NCBI GenBank assembly: GCA_023053545.1
Contig: JAKZAN010000005.1
Span: 3,286,001 to 3,350,000, forward strand
DNA length: 64,000 bases
Direction of reading: 5' to 3'
Source: Lepidurus packardi
Taxonomy: Eukaryota > Arthropoda > Branchiopoda > Notostraca > Triopsidae
Shown here one piece after another: positions 2,385 to 19,391 of this stretch. The notes beneath the pieces were generated by a model. That model ran no database searches and was not told the DNA's origin. It worked only from the letters and a program-made list of their open reading frames with translations. The first letter of the stretch is position 1; each line of letters starts with the position of its first letter. A program made the position numbers and the translations under genes.

Positions 2385-5300
2385 CGATAGAGTTCTAGGT
2401 GCAAAGGCGTACTCGTACGAGTTGAACCTGGACCAGTATTTGTATAATATTCAGCTAACGGGTCCATATCCCAACGATATGGATCAGGGAAACTGCATAT
2501 TTCTAGTGCTCGTCAAATGTTGTCGGAAAATATATGTTTATTTTTTTACCTGTGCGGAGCAATATTGGTGCCTACTTGGATCAATTGCTCTAAGGTTCTG
2601 AGCCTTGATTGTGCTCGTCGCAATTGTAGGCGCATACGACGCAGGTGCAAAGTACATATGGTATCTCGACACCGATGTTGGCGTAAACGGTCTTGCGTTT
2701 CAAAAACAGCGTCGCTGAATGTTAAAGATCGGCCCATGTTCTATTCAAAAAAGAAAGTTTGTAAGAGACAATAACCTTTTTCTTGTGTTGGCAAGAAAGC
2801 AAATATAAAGCTTACGATTGAAATAAGAGCGCAGCAAGCTCCTTTGCCAGTGTTGGCCAAATGAGCTCGTATGTATGTGAAATACATATGTTCTAATGCT
2901 AACAAGCAAATGGACAACCCAATCCCAGAAAGTAGCAGCAAAAACGCAGACAAAAACTGCTCCGTCGCTAACGGCTCGGAAAACTGACGCTCCTGCTTAT
3001 GTGGTTTGCAAATTCCCGTCAGCCAGAATCTTCGCAAGCGCTCCAAATCACCTGTGCAGTGTGCACCAAAAAAGGGTTCGGTCAACAAATCAGTATAAAA
3101 AAGCTATAAGGTTTCGTAATGTTACGCTAGTTTCTGAAGTTGTCATTTTTTACTAAGATAATCTTTTTAGTAAGAAAATCGTTTCTTTTTATCTTTTTTC
3201 AATACTTCATAATCTAATTTCGCATCAGAAACCATGTTCACAACTGGTATATACACATGCCATTTTCGGTGTATTCGAGCAGACGTTCGTTGAAAGCTTG
3301 CAAGTATTTGGAACCACGAGGAAACGCCAAGCCGTAGCCCGTCATGGCATACCAATTGCCTACTGTCAGCAAAGTGCACTCCTCATCTTGTGCAACCAGG
3401 TAATCTAATACTGCCCCGTCATAGAGGAACGCATCCAATTCCCTATTACGTTAGCAGATTAACAGAAAATACATTACATCGACAGGCTAAATATATCGCG
3501 ACTGCGTTGAATCTTGTCCTAGATTTTTCCCTTCAAGTTCCATAATTTCTAAGGGAGATCCAATTTACCCTGTTTTGACGCTGTCGATGCCCTCCCTGAT
3601 GACGCTTTTGTTGTAGTTCCGCATGTGTTGATACATGGCAGGATAATAACGTTTGATGGTAGCTTCGGTATGCGCATTGAGAACCGTGCCAAATTTCAGA
3701 GGCGGCTCAAGGCTCATGGGGTTGGTCAACTATGGACATAAAAAGATCTGCTTTCACTCCCTACGACAACCATACGTGTTGACATGTATCTTACCCTGGG
3801 GTCTTCGACTCCGCTGAAGTCGAAGAATTCTTCACGCGTGATCATGAAGGCGGCAAGATTAGCTGTGTATATAGCCAAGAACACCACGGCGAAGGAAGCC
3901 CAGACATTCGACATGAATCTGTCAGGAAAATTCGTTCAGATTAAGGTCAACGTATAAATTCAGCCTCACCCCATCGTTTTAGTTAGTGGCACTAAAACCC
4001 TTCTTAATAAACATGAAATGATTCTAGAGCTTTGATAATGAAGGAAAGATAACAGCATCTGGTACTAATCTTGCTCTGCATTATTTTTGGTCTGGGGGAG
4101 GATAACTGTTACGTGTTTTACTCCCTTTTTGATTATAAACCCCATGTTGTTTGTACAGGAAATGTGTGTGTCAACATGTAAACTGTGAATATTCGTGGTC
4201 CATTAATTACCTAGAAGTAAATCCTCGGGGACAATCCACGTTTACGGCCGCTTGGAATAATATGGCCCATACCAGCCAGTATGTGCGGAAGAGCGAAAAG
4301 CGTTGGTTTGTAGGCGGGGACAACTGACACAAACGCACACATTTCAAGTCAGTAATGCTACGTATAATGTTACATAATATGTTTTTCTCAAAACCTGCAT
4401 ATTGTAGCCAGACGGAGACAGCCATTCGAACATAAAAATGGTGAAAGCTGCTGCTTGAATTGCTACCACGCCAACCAACAACCATGATGCCGTATCAAAA
4501 GGTTCTGTATGGGTCCAATAGTATGTCACGATACAGTATTAGTGATATTTTTAACACTGAAAAAGAGAGAATGAAGGAATGTTGTCGTACCTAAAAACGC
4601 AGTGGCTGAAATGATCCCAGTCCTTTTGGCTACCAAGATGGCAATTCCAGTTTCCATGAACGGAAGACTAAAATCTGCAACGGACTCACGCTCGCTGTTG
4701 ATTGTGAGTGAAGACATTACCATATCCGATTTACGATGGGCTAGAACTCCCATCAGACCATTCCACTTGCCATTCTTGGTCGGGCAAGTAAAGAAATGTT
4801 GTCAAATTGCGCGAAAAAGGAACGATTAAATACAAAAGGTTTGGAAGACCCCAAATCGGGCATCATACTCTTTCCGATTATGACGCGAAATGATTGCAGA
4901 GATTATGCTTGCAATTCGTATAGGTATTAGAAAGGACCAGGCAAAACAGTCAAAATAATACATGCGCATGTGGCGCTAAGAAACGCACATCCAACAAAAG
5001 TCTGTTTAAGATTTCAACTAGAAAAAGTTTAAAATTAAAGAGAGAAATAACTAAAGCATTCTCCAAGCCACCGGGGTGCAAATGCTTTCCAAATGTGATT
5101 ACGGAAACCCACGAAATAAGGCACCATAAAAACTTACAACAAGAACTCCCCATTTTGGATCTTCTACACGAGATAAATCGTATGTGAAACCCAAATCTCC
5201 AGCTAATTTCTGAAGCAAGTCGATGCAAAACCCCGAGCAGCACTGGAAAGCTGACGCCGAGTGATTGCGATTGTTCGCTACCGTCCCGTTGGGACTATAT

Positions 5301-8300
5301 AAGTTGTTAACGGAGTAAGTCCAACCACAAACCAAGATTCCAGAAGCAAAAGATGTAAAAAAAAAGAAAAGAAAAAGTGTCAGCTATTTTTAACAGGATA
5401 TAAAGCTGATCCAGTATAAAAAAAAAAAAAACTTACGCAGAATCCGCGCCTGACAACCTACACAGGACGCCTTGGCTCACGTGGCAACGCCCAGTTACAG
5501 GATCGGCTGGGGCCAAGTTAATAAAAGGTGGCTCATCCAAGAAGATGATCTTCAAGTGGAATTTCTCGGGAACGCCTTGCGGGGGGACGTGACTATAACC
5601 CGGCCAGACAATATCTTTGATGTCCAAGGCTTGCTTTTTCCAAGATTGCCATCGCCCAATCTACATTATTCCCCGATCGCGTCCAAATAACCAAACTTGC
5701 ATTATTTCTTCAATTATGTGCAAAAGATAAATAAAAGATCCTGCCTTGTCAGCAGAAAGGTCTTACTTCCGTCCACACCAAACTTTCACTGGAACCAACG
5801 CCTGGTCTCAGGTTCATGATAACGAGTTCAACTGCCCTCAACGTGCCATCAGATTGGAACTCCACTTTGCATTTTCCCACGTCGCCCTCCACGCTTACAT
5901 TTTGCAAATACCTTCATAAATCAAATAAAAGATTTACTCATTAGCTTCCTCCATTTCCACGGCCCGACGAACGGTCTAGAGAACTAAAAAAAATGTAAAG
6001 AATAAAACATAAACTTGCTTGAAGAAACTCTGGCCAATGCCCCAACGGGTGTCTCCATGTCCATCACAGGATAACTGCGGCTGCAATGTCATGTTTAAAT
6101 TAGCAGGGTCGTCATGAAACTGTTGAACGCCATACACGAAGACTTTGAGAGCAGTAGAAATCGATTTGGTCAGACTTGCGTCACTCGTATCGAAATGTAC
6201 ACCTGGAGTCGTTAAGTAGATGGATGTGATTATTCCCCAAGTTCGCATCCAAACGAAAATGGTTTTTCACTCTTTTTTCTTCTTAAAAAAGGGTTACGAA
6301 TTATAGGATTTCGTTAAAAGAGACACGTGATAAATGACAAAAGGTAAACCACCAAAGGGAGAGAAATAAGTAATCGGTTTCTTACCCAACATTCCCACAG
6401 GAAATTCTTCTGGCGCTTCGTGGGTATTGCTGCCTATGACACTTTGCGTCACAATCCACACATATTTTTCGCCCGTGAGGCCCAAGACTGACGCGGCTAA
6501 AAAAATACTTCGCGCTTCTTCCCTCGTCGAGTACAAGAGTAATATTCGCGCTTCCGAGTTCACCAAAGGCGACAGTGGTTCTTGGTCGGCACTCACAATA
6601 ATCGTGTCTAGGATTGTGAATCTATTGAGGCAAAAAACAATAATAATACTAAAGCGAAAAGTAAACAAAAATACGGCTTGCAAACAAGAAAGCTATAAAT
6701 CCTCATTTGCGCTCTTAAATGTCTTCCTTTTTTCCTTCACCCAGGACCTGCAAAGCAGTACTCTTATCATGATAAATCTACATTAAGGAAATTGCTCAAC
6801 ATGTTTCTAACTTCAGAACAGGGTCGACGCTCCTTTGCTTGCCTCAGGGTGAATTTAGTTACGTGGGTGAACCGACAATGCACTAATCTTTCCCTTCAGG
6901 CCAATGTAGAAAAGGGTATACATGCCCTAGGGCACGTTTAGGGTGCCGTTTGCCATGCTTTACTAAGTCTTGCCCTATTTCCTTCCTTGAAATACGGCCG
7001 CTTCAGACTTCCGTGCTCGTACAAAACGAGAGTAGCCGCTTTGAGGTTTTACACATTTCCAAGCTTCGTCTTTTTTGTGTATGTATAGTACTTGTCTCTC
7101 CACAATACTACTGTATATTCAAAAGGAACACCAAGCTCGACGAATTCAACAAACGATCTTTTTTTTTTATAAATGATGTGCGAAGGACAAGTCCGGACAT
7201 TTACTCCCCCACTGACCTTTACGCTAAATAGTCCTGCCTTTTGGGGTCGCTCCAAGACAAACGATCTTGACAGCCATAATCATTAGAGCAATTTCCTTTT
7301 GAGCTTTATAAGACATGAGCTCTGGCGCCATAGGTTCAGGAAACCAGCCTTATATTCTATCTTCTATACAGTCATAGCGAAAGCAATCTGCCAAGGAAGA
7401 GAAGATAAGTTTTGGCCTACTAACGTATACATTCGCGTAGCCAGGGGCGGACCGAATGACCAAAGAAATATTGCCCACAAGAGGAATAAAAAAGAGGAAA
7501 AGACAAAAGGGGTCTGTTTTCCTTACTTGAAATCGCTCTCCAAGACAGCGTCGCGAACAGCTTGGATGAAATCATTGTAGCCGGCCACATGCGACGTCAC
7601 GATGGCAAACTGGTGCCAAGAGTAGCGCTGCAAGAGGGACAACATTGCTGCCGCTTGATGAGCTACCGAAGGCGCCATTTGGAGCACTAAACCGGAACTG
7701 GAGCTTCGCCTCTAACCAAAAAAGTATACAAAAGCATGAAGAAAAAAAAGTAGAAGAAAGAGTTGGTGGGCTCTTTTATGAAAGCCGAAAACTGGTATTA
7801 ACGTGGCTTAATTTATGGAGCGGACTAAAGGAGGGTGGAGCTCTACAATCTTCCAGATCGTTTGTTATGCACGGTGGCCAGTAATCACGGTAGCGAAGGC
7901 AGAAAACCTTCATTTTGACTCAACGGATGAAAGACATGGGCTTCCACGGCATTACATGAGGATTAAGACAACAGCAGCCATGCGGCAGTTAAGAGTCAGG
8001 CCTCGCGATAGGCTACCCACGGCAAGCTATACGACCAAACCAACAAAGTATTTTCTATTCGCAAGAAGCCTATAGAGACCAGAAACATAGTCGTTTGACA
8101 AAAGCCGAACGTTTCGCAGACGACAATACTGCCTGGGCACAACAATGGCGATGAGAGTATCTTCAGTACTTGGGCGTCGTGGAAACACTTTTCTGTACAT
8201 ACTTCGTACAACTGACCGTGTTATTCTTGGTGCTATTGATCAAAACGAATCACTTTGTCTGGGCACAATGTAATGTTTTGTTACTTCTCGGTTCTTATAC

Positions 8301-14300: not shown

Positions 14301-17078
14301 TTCCTTAGAGAGATGTATTACTTTCTCCAAAAACTAAAGATTTATTAAAGAAAAAGTCACCGTTGTTATATGGTGGTGCTCCATGATTAAAAGTCACCCA
14401 AGGAGAAGCTATATAACTGGCAGGAGAATCATCGCTCATTCCCGCAATACAAATTCTTTCAAAAAGTCTTGACACATTAAGCAGTGCCCCTTATGTAACT
14501 CAGTAGAACCTAGGGGCTGAAAACGCCATGAAGTTAGTGATGGGTTTGACATCACGATTGAAAGGCGAACGAATCGTAAGGAACAAGCGAGGGTTTTACT
14601 GTACTACAGTTTCATCTTTTCCAGTGGAAGGAATATAAATGTGATAAACGTAAGGAAAATCTTCACGTTTCACACTTCGACTCTTCTGACCTAACGATTT
14701 CTCATTTAGGGACTTCAACGACATGCAACAAACACCGACGATGAAGACTATACGGAGACCTTCGTGTTAGTCACGCATCTGTTATCACTTCTTAGGAACA
14801 GCTCATCTGAAGTGATGGTAAATCTAATAGCAAAGACTCGATGAAGAGGGCGAGCGTACCCTTGTCAACTTTTCTCCGGCGTACACTCATTTGATTTTGT
14901 CGTTTTTTCGCATCTCTTTTTTCTAAGAAAAAAAAACTCGTTTCCTTGTTCCCATCATTATTATAGCCTTGAGACATTGCACCGTTCCCCCCATTCCCCT
15001 TTTCTTGTTCTTGGTGTTGCAGCAAGTATTTTCTACATCAACACATGTTATTGTTGGCTTGTCCAGGGATGATGACTTGTTTCGTTCAGCAGAACAGATG
15101 ATAACGACAAGACCATTGTGTTGGTGAAAAAGATAAAATAGCTTTGCTATTTTATGTTGTTGTTTTTTTGTTGGTTTTCTTTATTTGTATGAAAAACGAT
15201 GCGATCTTTCATGCTATGGGTATGCGCCATAACAATACTTCTCGGAGATGGTTCGCATAAATCATGTTACTCGTTGTCTTTTTCTTTGCTTCTCTTCGGA
15301 GTCTAACCAGTTTAGCTTGTAATTCATACAGGAAACCAAGTAGAGGTCCATAACTTGCTACTAATGAACAACTTACCCTGACCTGACAGGAATACTGGTA
15401 TCCGCCAGGGGAATATGTAGATGAACAAGGGCTATGAAGTAATGCTGTACTATTATAATAGCCAGCTGGGAAAATGCGAAATGCAGACTATGATATATCT
15501 GAGCCATAACCAAACATGACACCATAGAACCCAATCCAATGTTCTAAATGTTTGTCTGATGTTAAATGGCGGAACAGTCTCGGGAAACAAGAAATGGGAA
15601 ACTTCAAGCTTGAAGTATTACACAAGCTTTAGCTTTCCTATTAGTAGAATAACTGAGTGACTTATGTTCATTTGTCAGTTAAACTTCAAGGTAGGGTACC
15701 GACTAACGAATGCTTTACCTAGTTTTAAAGCTCATTACCATACGATAAACCCCTCTCTTTTGTTTCGTACAGGGACCCCATTTCTTAACATTCCGAAGCT
15801 ACTTGGGTATGTTATCGTCATAGAACTGGAACCATAAACTAAACACCTAGCAGCCATATTTGGTGATGCTGTTAAGTTTGGAAACACGACACGCATTTTA
15901 CCGTACCATCTTCCTCGAACGAAATTCGTTCACAACAAACAATGGTCAGTATCAACCAGCACTTATTTCTTTCTAACAAGATATATAACAGAAAGCGTAA
16001 CTAAGTCACGAAACACCAGTTTAACTTCTATACTCAGGGAGATGAAAGAGAGAAAACTCGCTATAAGAGGACGTTCTTTTGTATCTTCTTCCTTTCCTTG
16101 CCATGATTGCTTTTCTTAGAAAAATGTATAATAAAAAAATGCGTGAGTACATTAATAAAGAAAAAAGTCCAGTCGGTATTCGAAATCCGTTGCGCTCAAT
16201 TTAGAGTCGGGACAGCAAACTGAGCGAAACGTGTCGCGATAGATTCGATATAACGTATACTTTGTCATGGGCTTTAGAAAACTCTCTCCCTACTCAGAAC
16301 GAAAAGTATTTTTTTAATGTTTTGTCCAGCAAATTTCGAACTTTGAAGTTTCCAAATTCTCTAAACCAACGTTCATGTTAAGTTAATCCTGGGCAACACT
16401 TCCGCTAGCCCCAGAAGCCAAACCTCATTTCCTTGCCAAAGGAATGGCTAACGCAAATCAAACGTCAATTACAAGTTCCTGATTCGTATGTGCCAAAAGC
16501 ATGAACAGACGCCGAAAATGGAAAGGGAAAAGAAGCTTATAGTGTCCCTTCTAGTTTGTACCTGTAGGACTTGGATTGACTTTGAGCATTTCCATATGGA
16601 TGTCTGACGAGGCAAAGCGATACACATGGAAGAAGTCCAATTCCTGCCGACGCAATGAGGTTAATGCCGCAGTCACAGCTTTATTGTACTCGCGCACTTT
16701 AAAAGTCGTATGAGGGACTAGTAAACCCAAGGCTACTTTAGGTATGGGTTTGGGAGCAGTGCTAGCCGTACTGGCACTAGCTAGACCAGTCCATATATCC
16801 TGAGGGCTCATCCATCTTGGTGAGCCGTCTTTCGGGCTCAGGGAGGATACGGTTAACTGATTCAAATTGGGACTATTATTAGGTAGTGAGGAAGACGCAG
16901 ATATGAAGGGGAGGGACGACGAAGTCGATGCATCGGGGAGATCAGACCAGCTCAACGAGTTTAAAGACGAAGGGCTTGCGACAACAAAAGTGGTCCAGTA
17001 CATCCACCCAAAGGCGAGGATAACCAATATACAGCAGACAGGCTGTGGAAGCCTTCCATAAATTTTGGCCATCGCCAT
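2385..17078 (-). CDS. NMDA-type ionotropic glutamate receptor, GluN2-like subunit (multi-exon)
   Basis: Ligand-gated cation channel subunit of the NMDA class. Exons in transcription order: 17078-16562, 12880-12702, 7711-7527, 6621-6386, 6202-6015, 5975-5938, 5911-5767, 5660-5437, 5294-5138, 4774-4591, 4504-4395, 4323-4211, 3918-3795, 3729-3569, 3442-3255, 3051-2816, then probable tail exons 2740-2550 and 2492-2385. All junctions keep phase. Exon 1 has a hydrophobic signal segment; the start is Met at 17078, although an in-frame Met at 17129 exists. Exons 1-7 are the amino-terminal (ANF-receptor-like) domain, 8-10 ligand lobe S1 with [11 protein letters not shown] and [18 protein letters not shown], 10-11 M1, 12 the pore loop, 13 M3 (IYTANLAAF), 14-16 lobe S2 with [10 protein letters not shown] and WLTGIC, then M4. 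Closest family is GluN2 (conserved S1 cysteines and the WLTGIC cysteine), not AMPA/kainate. About 995 residues precede the tail; the last exon is unresolved. Oddities: Gln at the pore N-site and Ile for the first Ser of SYTANLAAF. Confidence 0.93.
11130..11666. mobile_element. Pogo/Tigger-like non-autonomous DNA transposon (element A)
   Basis: The ends are imperfect terminal inverted repeats. The left begins CAGTGAAAAACGCTTAAC; the reverse complement of the right begins CAGTGAAAACCGCTTAAC. TA dinucleotides flank both ends, as expected for Tc1/mariner-pogo insertion. The interior is AT-rich, has no transposase, and carries several subterminal copies of a TTTCGTGTTAA-like motif near 11176, 11545, 11565 and 11643. 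It lies in intron 2 of the receptor gene, 17 bp from element B. CAGTGAAAACC ends are typical of Tigger elements. Confidence 0.75.
11684..12484 (+). mobile_element. Pogo/Tigger-like DNA transposon relic with CENP-B-like HTH remnant (element B)
   Basis: TA-flanked element about 800 bp long. The left end begins CAGTAGATGAAGCATACTG and the reverse complement of the right begins CAGTAGATGGCACTTATTG. A GGTTATTAGAATC motif recurs near both ends (11711, 11788, 12412). Inside, an ATG at 12145 opens a 36-codon frame ([20 protein letters not shown]...) ending in a stop at 12253. A frameshifted continuation reads [12 protein letters not shown]. Both pieces match the N-terminal helix-turn-helix of pogo/CENP-B transposases. 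The catalytic domain is missing, so this is an internally deleted, decayed copy. Confidence 0.75.
12145..12400 (+). pseudogene. Pogo/CENP-B-like transposase N-terminal fragment
   Basis: Remnant of the DNA-binding part of a pogo-family transposase within element B. The first 36 codons contain a basic start (NKKRVDL) and a KEKL...LPKGSGR stretch. The later frame contains [12 protein letters not shown], the recognition-helix signature of the CENP-B N-terminal domain. At least one frameshift and several stops separate the pieces. No DDE catalytic domain is present in the element. Confidence 0.65.
12881..16561 (-). other. Intron 1 of the GluN2-like gene
   Basis: Spacer of 3.7 kb between the signal/N-terminal exon and the second exon of the receptor. 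I see only short non-homologous ORFs, simple AT-rich tracts, and a GGTTTTACTGTA motif at about 14590 that resembles a lone pogo-type end. No nested gene is recognisable. Confidence 0.6.
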
Positions 17079-17129
17079 CACAGTGATACGCAATACACCA
17101 AAGAAAAAAACACTTGTTAAAAACAACAA

Positions 17130-19391
17130 TAAAACAAGGAGGAAATTATGGTTCTGAGGATCACGTCACTTTAAACTCACATGTTGTTCCAGTTTTAGGA
17201 ACTCAGATTAGATACACCTTAGTGCACAGCCTTTGAACCTGGGCAAAGGTACTCGGGCTCTCGAGCACTTTGAAGATGCCCAACACGTCTGGCATGACGA
17301 ACCAAGTCAGTCCTCGCAAACTTATTAACAATGACCGAATTGTGACTTTGGTGGATTTTAAAGATTACGTGGATCAACAGCCAGCCACTTTCTCGCCGTC
17401 TTCTCCCTAGCTGAATTCCTGGGAACGCTCTCGCTAATCAAGTGTTGAAAGCACGTGACTACGAATTTGGGCTTGCGGGGGTACAACTGACCGAAAATCC
17501 ACAGAATTTCTCCACGGACGGTCGTCTGCCTGCTTCTGCCTTGGTCTGCACTAGGGGTCGTCAGGTCGCCTTGCCCCTGGTGTAAGACGATGTGCTGCGC
17601 CCGCGACTAGACGCGCAACACTTGGGTATACACATGCATGTACAATTATGTATAAAATACGCAATTGGAAAGATAACATATTGTGGTGCGCTAGCATCAA
17701 CCCTTCACATTGACCAGGTTGCCCCTTTATCTCAACAAAGTCCTAAGATTATAAATTCCCCGTGGAAGAATAACATACGCTGTACTGCAGGCTAGTGGCA
17801 GTTCATATACCAAACGCGGGGGTTCAATCTAATCAGGACAAATGTCAATAGCAGCGGAAAACAAGACACCATAAAATAGCGTAGTTCCAACGCTTCGGAC
17901 ATTGTTTGTGCTTGTGAGCTGTGTTCTAAGCAAATACGCCTTGCTATATCCCGCGAGTTTGCATAACCTGTCTGTTTAATCAACAATCAAAGGTGTGCTC
18001 ATCTACTTATACCTCGTGATACAATGTAAGCATTTCGCTAATCCATCTTTCTGGAGAACAAAGCCTTTAGCTACTGCACGGAGATCTAAGCATTCGCACT
18101 CAATCTTTTTAATTGTTTTTCAATTTCTCATTTTTTTTACAACGAGAAGACCAAGTGCGTTCCGCGAAGCCAGAGAATAGCAACAATAAGCCTTTCCTTC
18201 CCAAAAGCAATAATAGCCACAGTAGAAATTCCTAAAAGCTATGCGGGGTCTTGTTAACATGGGATTGATGATGCTTCTTTCAATGCTCTCGAGCCATCTG
18301 CTGCGGTTGGCTCAAGGTGTTACAACTACAAGAGTACAATTCCGGTATATAGTGCACGCCTTAAGGAGTTTTCGCTGAAAAAATTTTACTGTGATTTTCA
18401 GCCAGACCTCGTTTCATCACAGCCAGTAGGTTCCGGAGACGAACCAATCAGGACATTTTAACAAATAACTTGATCCGGGCAACCACCATTAATAATTTAA
18501 AAGGGAACAAGCCTATTCTGGCTTCTTTGTTAGAAACCAAGAAAGAAGCATATATGATATAACGTAAGGGCAAGCGGGTCGGTTTATGGGGGCGTTCTTA
18601 CACCTTTTCGCACCAAAGCAGCTATAAACGTTCCGCATGTATATTAATAAATTGCTTTTCATGCTTAATAAGAACGATCGAATCATCAGTGATCCTAATG
18701 AATCGCCTATCAGTCACTTTTCCATTTTTTGTCGGCGCTATTACCCGTTGGCTGCGATCCGGGGTTAATGATGCTATAACACGAGCACATGACAGTCTAA
18801 ATGCTTTACGGTATCGATCTCGGCTTCACTTCTCACTCAAGTTTTCGCTTGCAGGAAAAAGTCGCTTACGCTGCATCTCTTTTTGTACAGAAGCTTACGA
18901 CTTGGGAAGAAGCGAACAAACTTTGCCCTTTATCTGGTAAGGCGGCAATTCGTCCACGATCCTAGGCTTGCCAATGACCCCGTAAAGCCGAACTTGAAGG
19001 TCTCGCGCACGGATCTCTGAATAGTCAGAAAAAAAGAAACAACCAACTCCTCTTACAATACCGAAAGTTGCCCCGCAGAAATTTGACGGAGCCAGCGATT
19101 CTTTAGCTGCACTGCCTAGCTCTTTCCTTTTGCCCAGCTTCAAAAGTTGAATGACAAGCCAATATCCGAAGACTCGATGTTTTGGTTAGACTTTATACGG
19201 ATTACATAAGAGGAGACATCCAGTAGAAACAACAGGGATCAGGCGACTTTAGGGTTTACATGGTGTAATAGAAAAGATCATACTAGCCATTAAAACATAC
19301 GACGTTTTCGCATGGATTAATACTATTGCATAACAAATTAGAAATATGAGAAGATTTGGTGCCTTGTAAATAATATACAAATAATTTTAAA
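17130..19391. other. Spacer upstream of the GluN2-like gene
   Basis: Presumed 5' flank of the receptor gene. No recognised coding exon, repeat or RNA gene was seen. Promoter elements cannot be assigned by eye. Confidence 0.5.

What the first reader, a model, noticed from the sequence alone, without database searches (positions are those of the whole stretch)
4211..4323. GluN2-like subunit with glutamine at the pore N-site
Aligning [20 protein letters not shown] to vertebrate GluN2 (WLLWGLVFNNSVPVQNPKG) puts Gln-Ala where GluN2 has Asn-Asn. Gln is the residue AMPA/kainate receptors carry at the equivalent Q/R site. The N-site asparagines control calcium permeability and magnesium block in NMDA receptors, so this subunit could lack classical Mg block. 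The residue is read directly; the functional consequence is inference.
Basis: partly seen in the sequence, partly recalled or inferred. Interest (0 to 1): 0.7.

Follow-up and report, generated by a model that had tools for sequence, protein, structure and literature searches.

The report
Arthropod NMDA receptor with altered filter
[quoted passage not shown] this probably weakens rather than removes magnesium block, and is most likely an ordinary arthropod form rather than a new kind of channel.

Summary
Window 4323-4211 (minus strand) is one exon of an open GluN2-type gene. In a gap-free alignment to vertebrate GluN2D, FNNSV becomes FQAAV: Gln (CAA, 4254-4252) at the N site, Ala at N+1. Ten exons with GT-AG introns give 547 residues without a stop; 59 of the 60 best structure matches shown are named GluN2. 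No second copy was found in the genome, whose TTAGG contig end points to an arthropod. Its GluN1 keeps the N-site Asn; its GluN3-like gene has Ser-His. No second pore exon and no editing hairpin were found; A-to-I editing of CAA gives only Gln or Arg codons. Published vertebrate changes at either GluN2 position weaken Mg block, so weak block is the prediction (inference). 'Lacks classical Mg block' goes too far: flies have a block that depends on GluN1 Asn, and, from memory only, fly Nmdar2 has the same FQAAV. No other arthropod GluN2 could be aligned here. Probably an arthropod-wide form: new member of a known kind, low interest. In passing: two kainate/AMPA-type genes carry tandem pore exons that could choose the Q/R-site residue by splicing.

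The parts
4211..4323 (-). Pore (M2/re-entrant loop) exon of GluN2: [37 protein letters not shown] plus two bases of the next codon
   Evidence: AG/GT borders, phase 0 in, 2 out; only significant pore match in the window
4252..4254 (-). N-site codon CAA (Gln) opposite vertebrate GluN2 N-site Asn
   Evidence: gapless alignments
4249..4251 (-). N+1 codon GCG (Ala) opposite the second vertebrate Asn
3795..3918 (-). M3 exon, [41 protein letters not shown]
   Evidence: Lig_chan match at this place (C4:3289801-3289929)
4395..4504 (-). M1 exon, [13 protein letters not shown]...SGYNMQ
4591..4774 (-). End of ligand-binding half S1, [13 protein letters not shown]...SATAFL
5138..5294 (-). S1 exon, PNGTVANN...[31 protein letters not shown]
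5437..5660 (-). S1 exon, [10 protein letters not shown]...[13 protein letters not shown]; its acceptor has a poor pyrimidine stretch (0.33), so this border is the least certain
5767..5911 (-). End of amino-terminal domain exon
3569..3729 (-). S2 exon, [30 protein letters not shown]...
3255..3442 (-). S2 exon, [40 protein letters not shown]...
   Evidence: donor, acceptor; my first end (3256) broke the frame and was set to the listed donor
2816..3051 (-). M4 exon, [16 protein letters not shown]...[22 protein letters not shown]
   Evidence: aligned to GluN2D M4
16551..17165 (-). Possible first coding exon (hydrophobic start and beginning of amino-terminal domain); assignment by eye only
   Evidence: open frame; no Pfam family

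Best explanation
This is the GluN2 (NMDA2-class) gene of an animal that is most likely an arthropod. Its protein would pair with the genome's GluN1 in a tetramer whose narrowest ring is two Asn (GluN1) plus two Gln (GluN2), with Ala instead of Asn at the next place in GluN2. Shown: gene structure, class by similarity, the residues, the Asn in GluN1. Inferred from vertebrate mutants: Ca2+ still passes, but extracellular Mg2+ is held less tightly, so block is weak and needs high Mg2+ or strong hyperpolarisation; the remaining block rests on the GluN1 Asn. Inferred from recall only: the Gln-Ala pair is the usual arthropod GluN2 state, not a peculiarity of this species.
For: Ten exons with GT-AG borders, chosen by hand among the candidates so that phases match, join to 547 aa with no stop. 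Of 384 structure matches the 60 best are shown: 59 are named GluN2, one only 'Glutamate receptor'; best GluN2D E 2.5e-122. Pfam Lig_chan and Lig_chan-Glu_bd above cut-off. 48.0% identity to GluN2D against 35.3% to GluN1 and 38.0% to GluN3A of the PDB. A GluN1 (76.6% identical to PDB GluN1, LLNSGIGEG) and a GluN3-like gene (pairs with GluN3A, support 99/97) exist apart from it. Of 36 genome matches at E<=1, 10 are this gene; the best of the other 26 are in the GluN3-like and GluN1 genes (the tool says counts are lower bounds). TTAGG repeats end contig C3. Vertebrate evidence: GluN2A N614Q leaves Ca2+ permeability unchanged but strongly reduces Mg2+ affinity (PMC8667807 passage); GluN2A N615S, the N+1 site by my numbering, attenuates Mg block (PMC7794508 passages); GluN2B N615Q robustly affects it (PMC13246513 passages). 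Fly Mg block is altered by GluN1 N631Q (PMC13065333 passages); fly workers used 4 mM Mg to prevent block and a 20 mM MgCl2 wash (PMC5262376 passage). [quoted passage not shown]
Against: No other arthropod GluN2 could be aligned: searches found no animal GluN2, so 'arthropod-wide' rests on memory. The 8-row tree does not resolve this protein with GluN2D apart from GluN3 (that fork is open, under 80). The double change Gln plus Ala was not among the mutants in the passages read. PMC2974739 (passage) says Gln at either N site lowers Ca2+ permeability, against the unchanged Ca2+ permeability above. PMC12226733 (passage) calls the GluN2A site otherwise invariable. PMC9616736 (passage) reports hindrance already at 4 mM Mg in flies, which fits a tighter block than I predict; PMC7843133 (abstract) finds Mg-enhanced fly memory independent of mushroom-body NMDA receptors.
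Confidence: 0.75

Rival explanations
1. The Gln-Ala filter abolishes Mg2+ block at any natural Mg2+ level, so this animal's NMDA receptors are plain ligand-gated Ca2+ channels without coincidence detection.
For: Both GluN2 positions that hold Mg2+ in vertebrates are changed; single changes already weaken block (passages).
Against: GluN1 Asn, which also takes part in Mg2+ binding, is kept; fly NMDA receptors show block (passages) with, as recalled, the same GluN2 motif.
Confidence: 0.15
2. The genomic Gln is recoded to Arg by A-to-I editing, as in vertebrate GluA2, giving a Ca2+-impermeable, Mg2+-insensitive subunit.
For: The codon CAA could become CGA (Arg) by A-to-I editing.
Against: 0 of 9 inverted repeat pairs reported in 3569-4774 cover the codon; 3795-4504 folds no better than shuffles (z -0.87, 4 of 20 shuffles at least as good). 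Pairing partners outside these stretches were not sought.
Confidence: 0.04
3. The exon is not the one used: another pore exon with Asn-Asn is spliced in instead.
For: Two kainate/AMPA-type genes of the same genome do have tandem pore exons.
Against: The flanking introns are 71 and 292 nt and I see no pore-like segment in their three frames; tblastn of the GluN2D pore finds no second significant copy in the window; the genome search lists one copy.
Confidence: 0.02

Closest known systems
Drosophila melanogaster Nmdar2 (dNR2), recalled
   Same: From memory only: same FQAAV pore tip, [16 protein letters not shown]3 and similar start of the C-tail. Its partner GluN1 has an Asn (N631) whose change gives an Mg-block mutant (PMC13065333 passages).
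   Different: Cannot say; no sequence of it was available to align.
Vertebrate GluN2A-D
   Same: Channel core, gapless pore, 48.0% identity to GluN2D over 177 columns, FMI after YTANLAA.
   Different: Gln-Ala for Asn-Asn; IYTANLAAF for SYTANLAAF; Asn where GluN2D has Leu before VWA (that this is the S/L site is recalled).
AMPA and kainate receptors
   Same: Gln at the position equivalent to the Q/R site (equivalence stated in the background section of PMC2974739).
   Different: Pore loop one residue longer than in two of this genome's AMPA/kainate-type subunits, Asn rather than an acid at +4, and about 29% identity to them.

Membership tests
GluN2 (NMDA2) class | Ligand-gated channel core with S1/S2 binding halves and M1-M4 | tested here: met
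   Pfam Lig_chan E 9.9e-28 and Lig_chan-Glu_bd E 1.7e-27, both above cut-off; M4 aligned
GluN2 (NMDA2) class | Closer to GluN2 than to GluN1, GluN3 or AMPA/kainate | tested here: met
   59 of the 60 rows shown, of 384 matches, are named GluN2, the other 'Glutamate receptor'; 48.0% vs 35.3% (GluN1), 38.0% (GluN3A), 29-30% (own AMPA/kainate-type)
GluN2 (NMDA2) class | Groups with GluN2 in a tree, apart from GluN3 | tested here: inconclusive
   GluN2+GluN3 clade 97/97, but the fork joining this protein to GluN2D is open, under 80 (8 rows)
GluN2 (NMDA2) class | Glutamate-contact residues (SxTxxxxR, T in xTE, YD; roles recalled) | tested here: inconclusive
   Seen: [15 protein letters not shown] (GluN2D GSTEK), FLYDGAV; the Ser before Thr is His here
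Vertebrate-type GluN2 | Asn at both N and N+1 (PMC2974739 background section) | tested here: not met
   Gln and Ala
Classical NMDA receptor | GluN1 partner with Asn at the N site | tested here: met
   AWGVLLNSGIGEG within one open frame of L032, aligned to PDB GluN1
Classical NMDA receptor | Voltage-dependent Mg2+ block and high Ca2+ permeability | not testable with these tools
   needs recordings
AMPA/kainate receptor | Whole-protein similarity to AMPA/kainate | tested here: not met
   29.7% and 29.4% identity to two of this genome's AMPA/kainate-type genes

The most novel reading that the evidence does not exclude
Arthropod NMDA receptors carry a mixed Asn/Gln filter with Ala at N+1, plus a rewritten GluN1 entrance motif (DRPKTS for DRPEER), as a matched set that lowers Mg2+ affinity into the range of the animals' high-Mg2+ blood (blood level recalled), so coincidence detection is kept by tuning the site rather than conserving it; in a low-Mg2+ freshwater species the same filter would act as an unblocked Ca2+ channel.
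Probability: 0.25. Interest if true: 0.5.

Novelty: new member of a known kind. Interest (0 to 1): 0.25.

Why it matters
The GluN2 Asn pair is usually seen as a main seat of Mg2+ block and so of coincidence detection. An open GluN2 gene without either Asn, next to a GluN1 that keeps its Asn, is a natural test of how much block the GluN1 ring alone supports and whether block is tuned to blood Mg2+. It matters modestly, because flies already offer the same test if, as I recall, they share the motif.

Tried and rejected
Rejected: wrong exon or pseudogene (open frame, splice borders and phases fit; transcripts were not available). Rejected: second pore exon in this gene. Not supported: editing hairpin. 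Rejected: an AMPA/kainate gene misread as GluN2.

Led nowhere: looking for stray animal GluN2 in the bacterial, viral and plasmid collections (no animal gene; one search gave six records, the annotated ones bacterial transporter binding proteins; the peptide patterns picked did not include the M3 motif, which searches then searched). Looking for a printed statement of the N-site residue of insect or crustacean GluN2: paper searches; I saw none in the listings or in the passages that I opened, which does not show that none exists. Four papers sought by id were not held (one paper; 54, 55, 56). Rows dropped: one search uses 2 of the AMPA/kainate-type genes and none of the divergent receptor genes among the 80 matches. 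No structure prediction was run.

Full report
What is there. The window is the stretch 3286001-3350000 of contig C4 in a 108.6 Mb assembly. On its minus strand lies a gene for a glutamate-gated channel subunit. Ten exons from 5911 down to 2816, their borders chosen by hand among the candidates, join into 547 residues without a stop (a one-base slip at one donor was corrected to the listed donor). They cover the end of the amino-terminal domain, both halves of the ligand-binding domain and M1 to M4. A further open frame at 16551-17165 looks by eye like a first coding exon, but Pfam found nothing in it.

Which subunit. The best solved-structure match is GluN2D (E 2.5e-122); of 384 matches the 60 best are shown, 59 named GluN2 and one named only 'Glutamate receptor'. 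Pfam gives Lig_chan and Lig_chan-Glu_bd above their cut-offs. Over S1 to M3 the protein is 48.0% identical to GluN2D, 35.3% to GluN1 and 38.0% to GluN3A of the PDB; in an 8-row tree it falls in a GluN2+GluN3 clade with support 97/97, but its pairing with GluN2D is not resolved. The same genome has a GluN1 gene (76.6% identical to PDB GluN1 over 175 columns) and a GluN3-like gene that pairs with GluN3A at 99/97. Of 36 matches to the window protein in the genome at E <= 1, 10 are its own exons and the best of the other 26 are in these two genes, so no second GluN2 copy was found (the tool calls its counts lower bounds). TTAGG repeats form the end of contig C3, which points to an arthropod; that TTAGG is the arthropod telomere repeat is general knowledge, and the species is not known.

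The residue. The alignment is gap-free through the pore: GluN2D WLLWALVFNNSVPVENPRG against [19 protein letters not shown]. Gln, codon CAA at 4254-4252, takes the N site and Ala, codon GCG at 4251-4249, the N+1 site. GluN1 keeps Asn-Ser at these places (LLNSGIGEG), while the GluN3-like protein has Ser-His where PDB GluN3A has Gly-Arg.

Could the protein differ from the genome? Probably not by a second pore exon: the introns on either side are 71 and 292 nt, I see nothing pore-like in their three frames, and tblastn with the GluN2D pore has one significant hit in the window, this exon (E 2e-7, next E 2.0). Not by known editing into Asn: A-to-I can turn CAA only into Gln or Arg codons and C-to-U gives a stop. 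There is no sign of an editing hairpin nearby: 0 of 9 inverted repeat pairs reported in 3569-4774 cover the codon, and 3795-4504 folds like its shuffles (z -0.87, 4 of 20 at least as good). RNA reads were not available.

What it does. In vertebrate receptors the cage of Asn side chains in GluN1 and GluN2 binds hydrated Mg2+ above the filter, and GluN2B Asn615Gln or GluN1 Asn616Gln robustly affects block (PMC13246513, passages read). A modelling paper states, citing earlier work, that GluN2A N614Q leaves Ca2+ permeability unchanged but strongly reduces Mg2+ affinity, while the same change in GluN1 reduces both (PMC8667807, passage read). The discussion of a mutagenesis paper says, citing Wollmuth, that Gln at either N site widens the constriction and lowers Ca2+ permeability (PMC2974739; abstract, background section and passages read), so the Ca2+ effect is not agreed. 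GluN2A N615S, the N+1 site by my numbering, attenuates block and raises Ca2+ permeability 1.4-fold (PMC7794508, passages read). With both positions changed here, weak Mg2+ block and kept Ca2+ permeability are the reasonable prediction; this is inference, and no double mutant of this kind was seen.

Why 'no Mg2+ block' is not the best reading. Flies overexpressing GluN1 N631Q are used as Mg2+-block mutants (PMC13065333, passages read), so fly receptors do have a block in which the GluN1 Asn matters; [quoted passage not shown] Fly workers dilute NMDA in 4 mM Mg2+ to prevent block and wash in 20 mM MgCl2 (PMC5262376, passage read), which suggests low affinity; another group saw hindrance at 4 mM (PMC9616736, passage read), which argues the other way, and a third found Mg-enhanced fly memory independent of mushroom-body NMDA receptors (PMC7843133, abstract and passages). 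From memory, fly Nmdar2 carries the same FQAAV. I could not test this: searches gave no animal GluN2, and in my ten paper searches I saw no statement of the residue. One survey of placozoan receptors says that Q/R/N-site variability extends to all classes of animal glutamate receptors, though it also calls the GluN2A site otherwise invariable (PMC12226733, passages read).

Verdict. A correctly read and real substitution in an open GluN2 gene; most likely the standard arthropod state with weakened rather than absent Mg2+ block. New member of a known kind, interest 0.25.

Passing observation of possibly greater interest. Two AMPA/kainate-type genes in this genome have two M1-M2 exons in tandem before one M3 exon, with matching splice phases (one M3-type Lig_chan match for each gene). 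In L036 one exon encodes Arg at the Q/R site with Gly at +4, the other Gln with Asp at +4; in L037 one has Lys with Val at +4, the other Ser with Asp. Each pair thus offers a positively charged filter without the +4 acid and a neutral one with it, the two determinants of polyamine block named in PMC12226733 (passages). If spliced exclusively, this would be a genomic stand-in for Q/R editing. Transcripts are needed; I made no search of the literature for this.

Noticed in passing
L036 (C3:3089000-3096000, minus strand), reverse-complement positions 3105-3362 and about 3635-3898, M3 exon from 5063: Tandem M1-M2 exons before one M3 exon in an AMPA/kainate-type gene, both with phase-0 ends: one encodes Arg at the Q/R site and Gly at +4 (LLRQGSGLNPK), the other Gln and Asp (LMQQGSDLNPK). 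Candidate splice-chosen Q/R site.
   Followed up: partly
L037 (C6:6218000-6225500, plus strand), 3933-4291 and 4519-4874, M3 exon from 4993: A second gene with tandem M1-M2 exons of matching phase: Lys with Val at +4 (LLKAGSVTLPR) versus Ser with Asp at +4 (FMSQGADVSPR).
   Followed up: partly
L038 (C3:3142000-3149000, plus strand), 2397-2600 and 2792-2998: Two similar S1 ligand-binding exons in tandem with phase-0 ends in a third gene, possibly alternative binding-domain halves.
   Followed up: partly
L032 about 6256-6420 (C6:9106255 onward): GluN1 ortholog has DRPKTS where PDB GluN1 has DRPEER, the entrance motif named for Ca2+ permeability in a passage of PMC13246513.
   Followed up: partly
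L059 about 5170-5493 (C4:10067169 onward): GluN3-like gene has Ser-His (LLFSHLV) where PDB GluN3A has Gly-Arg (LLFGRTV) at N and N+1.
   Followed up: partly
window 3908-3906 and 3872-3870, minus strand: In the M3 exon, Asn stands where GluN2D has Leu before VWA (the S/L site by recall), and SYTANLAAF reads IYTANLAAF.
   Followed up: partly
whole genome G000: 80 Lig_chan matches at E <= 10, spread over several contigs, which suggests a large set of ionotropic receptor genes beyond the NMDA and AMPA/kainate types.
   Followed up: no
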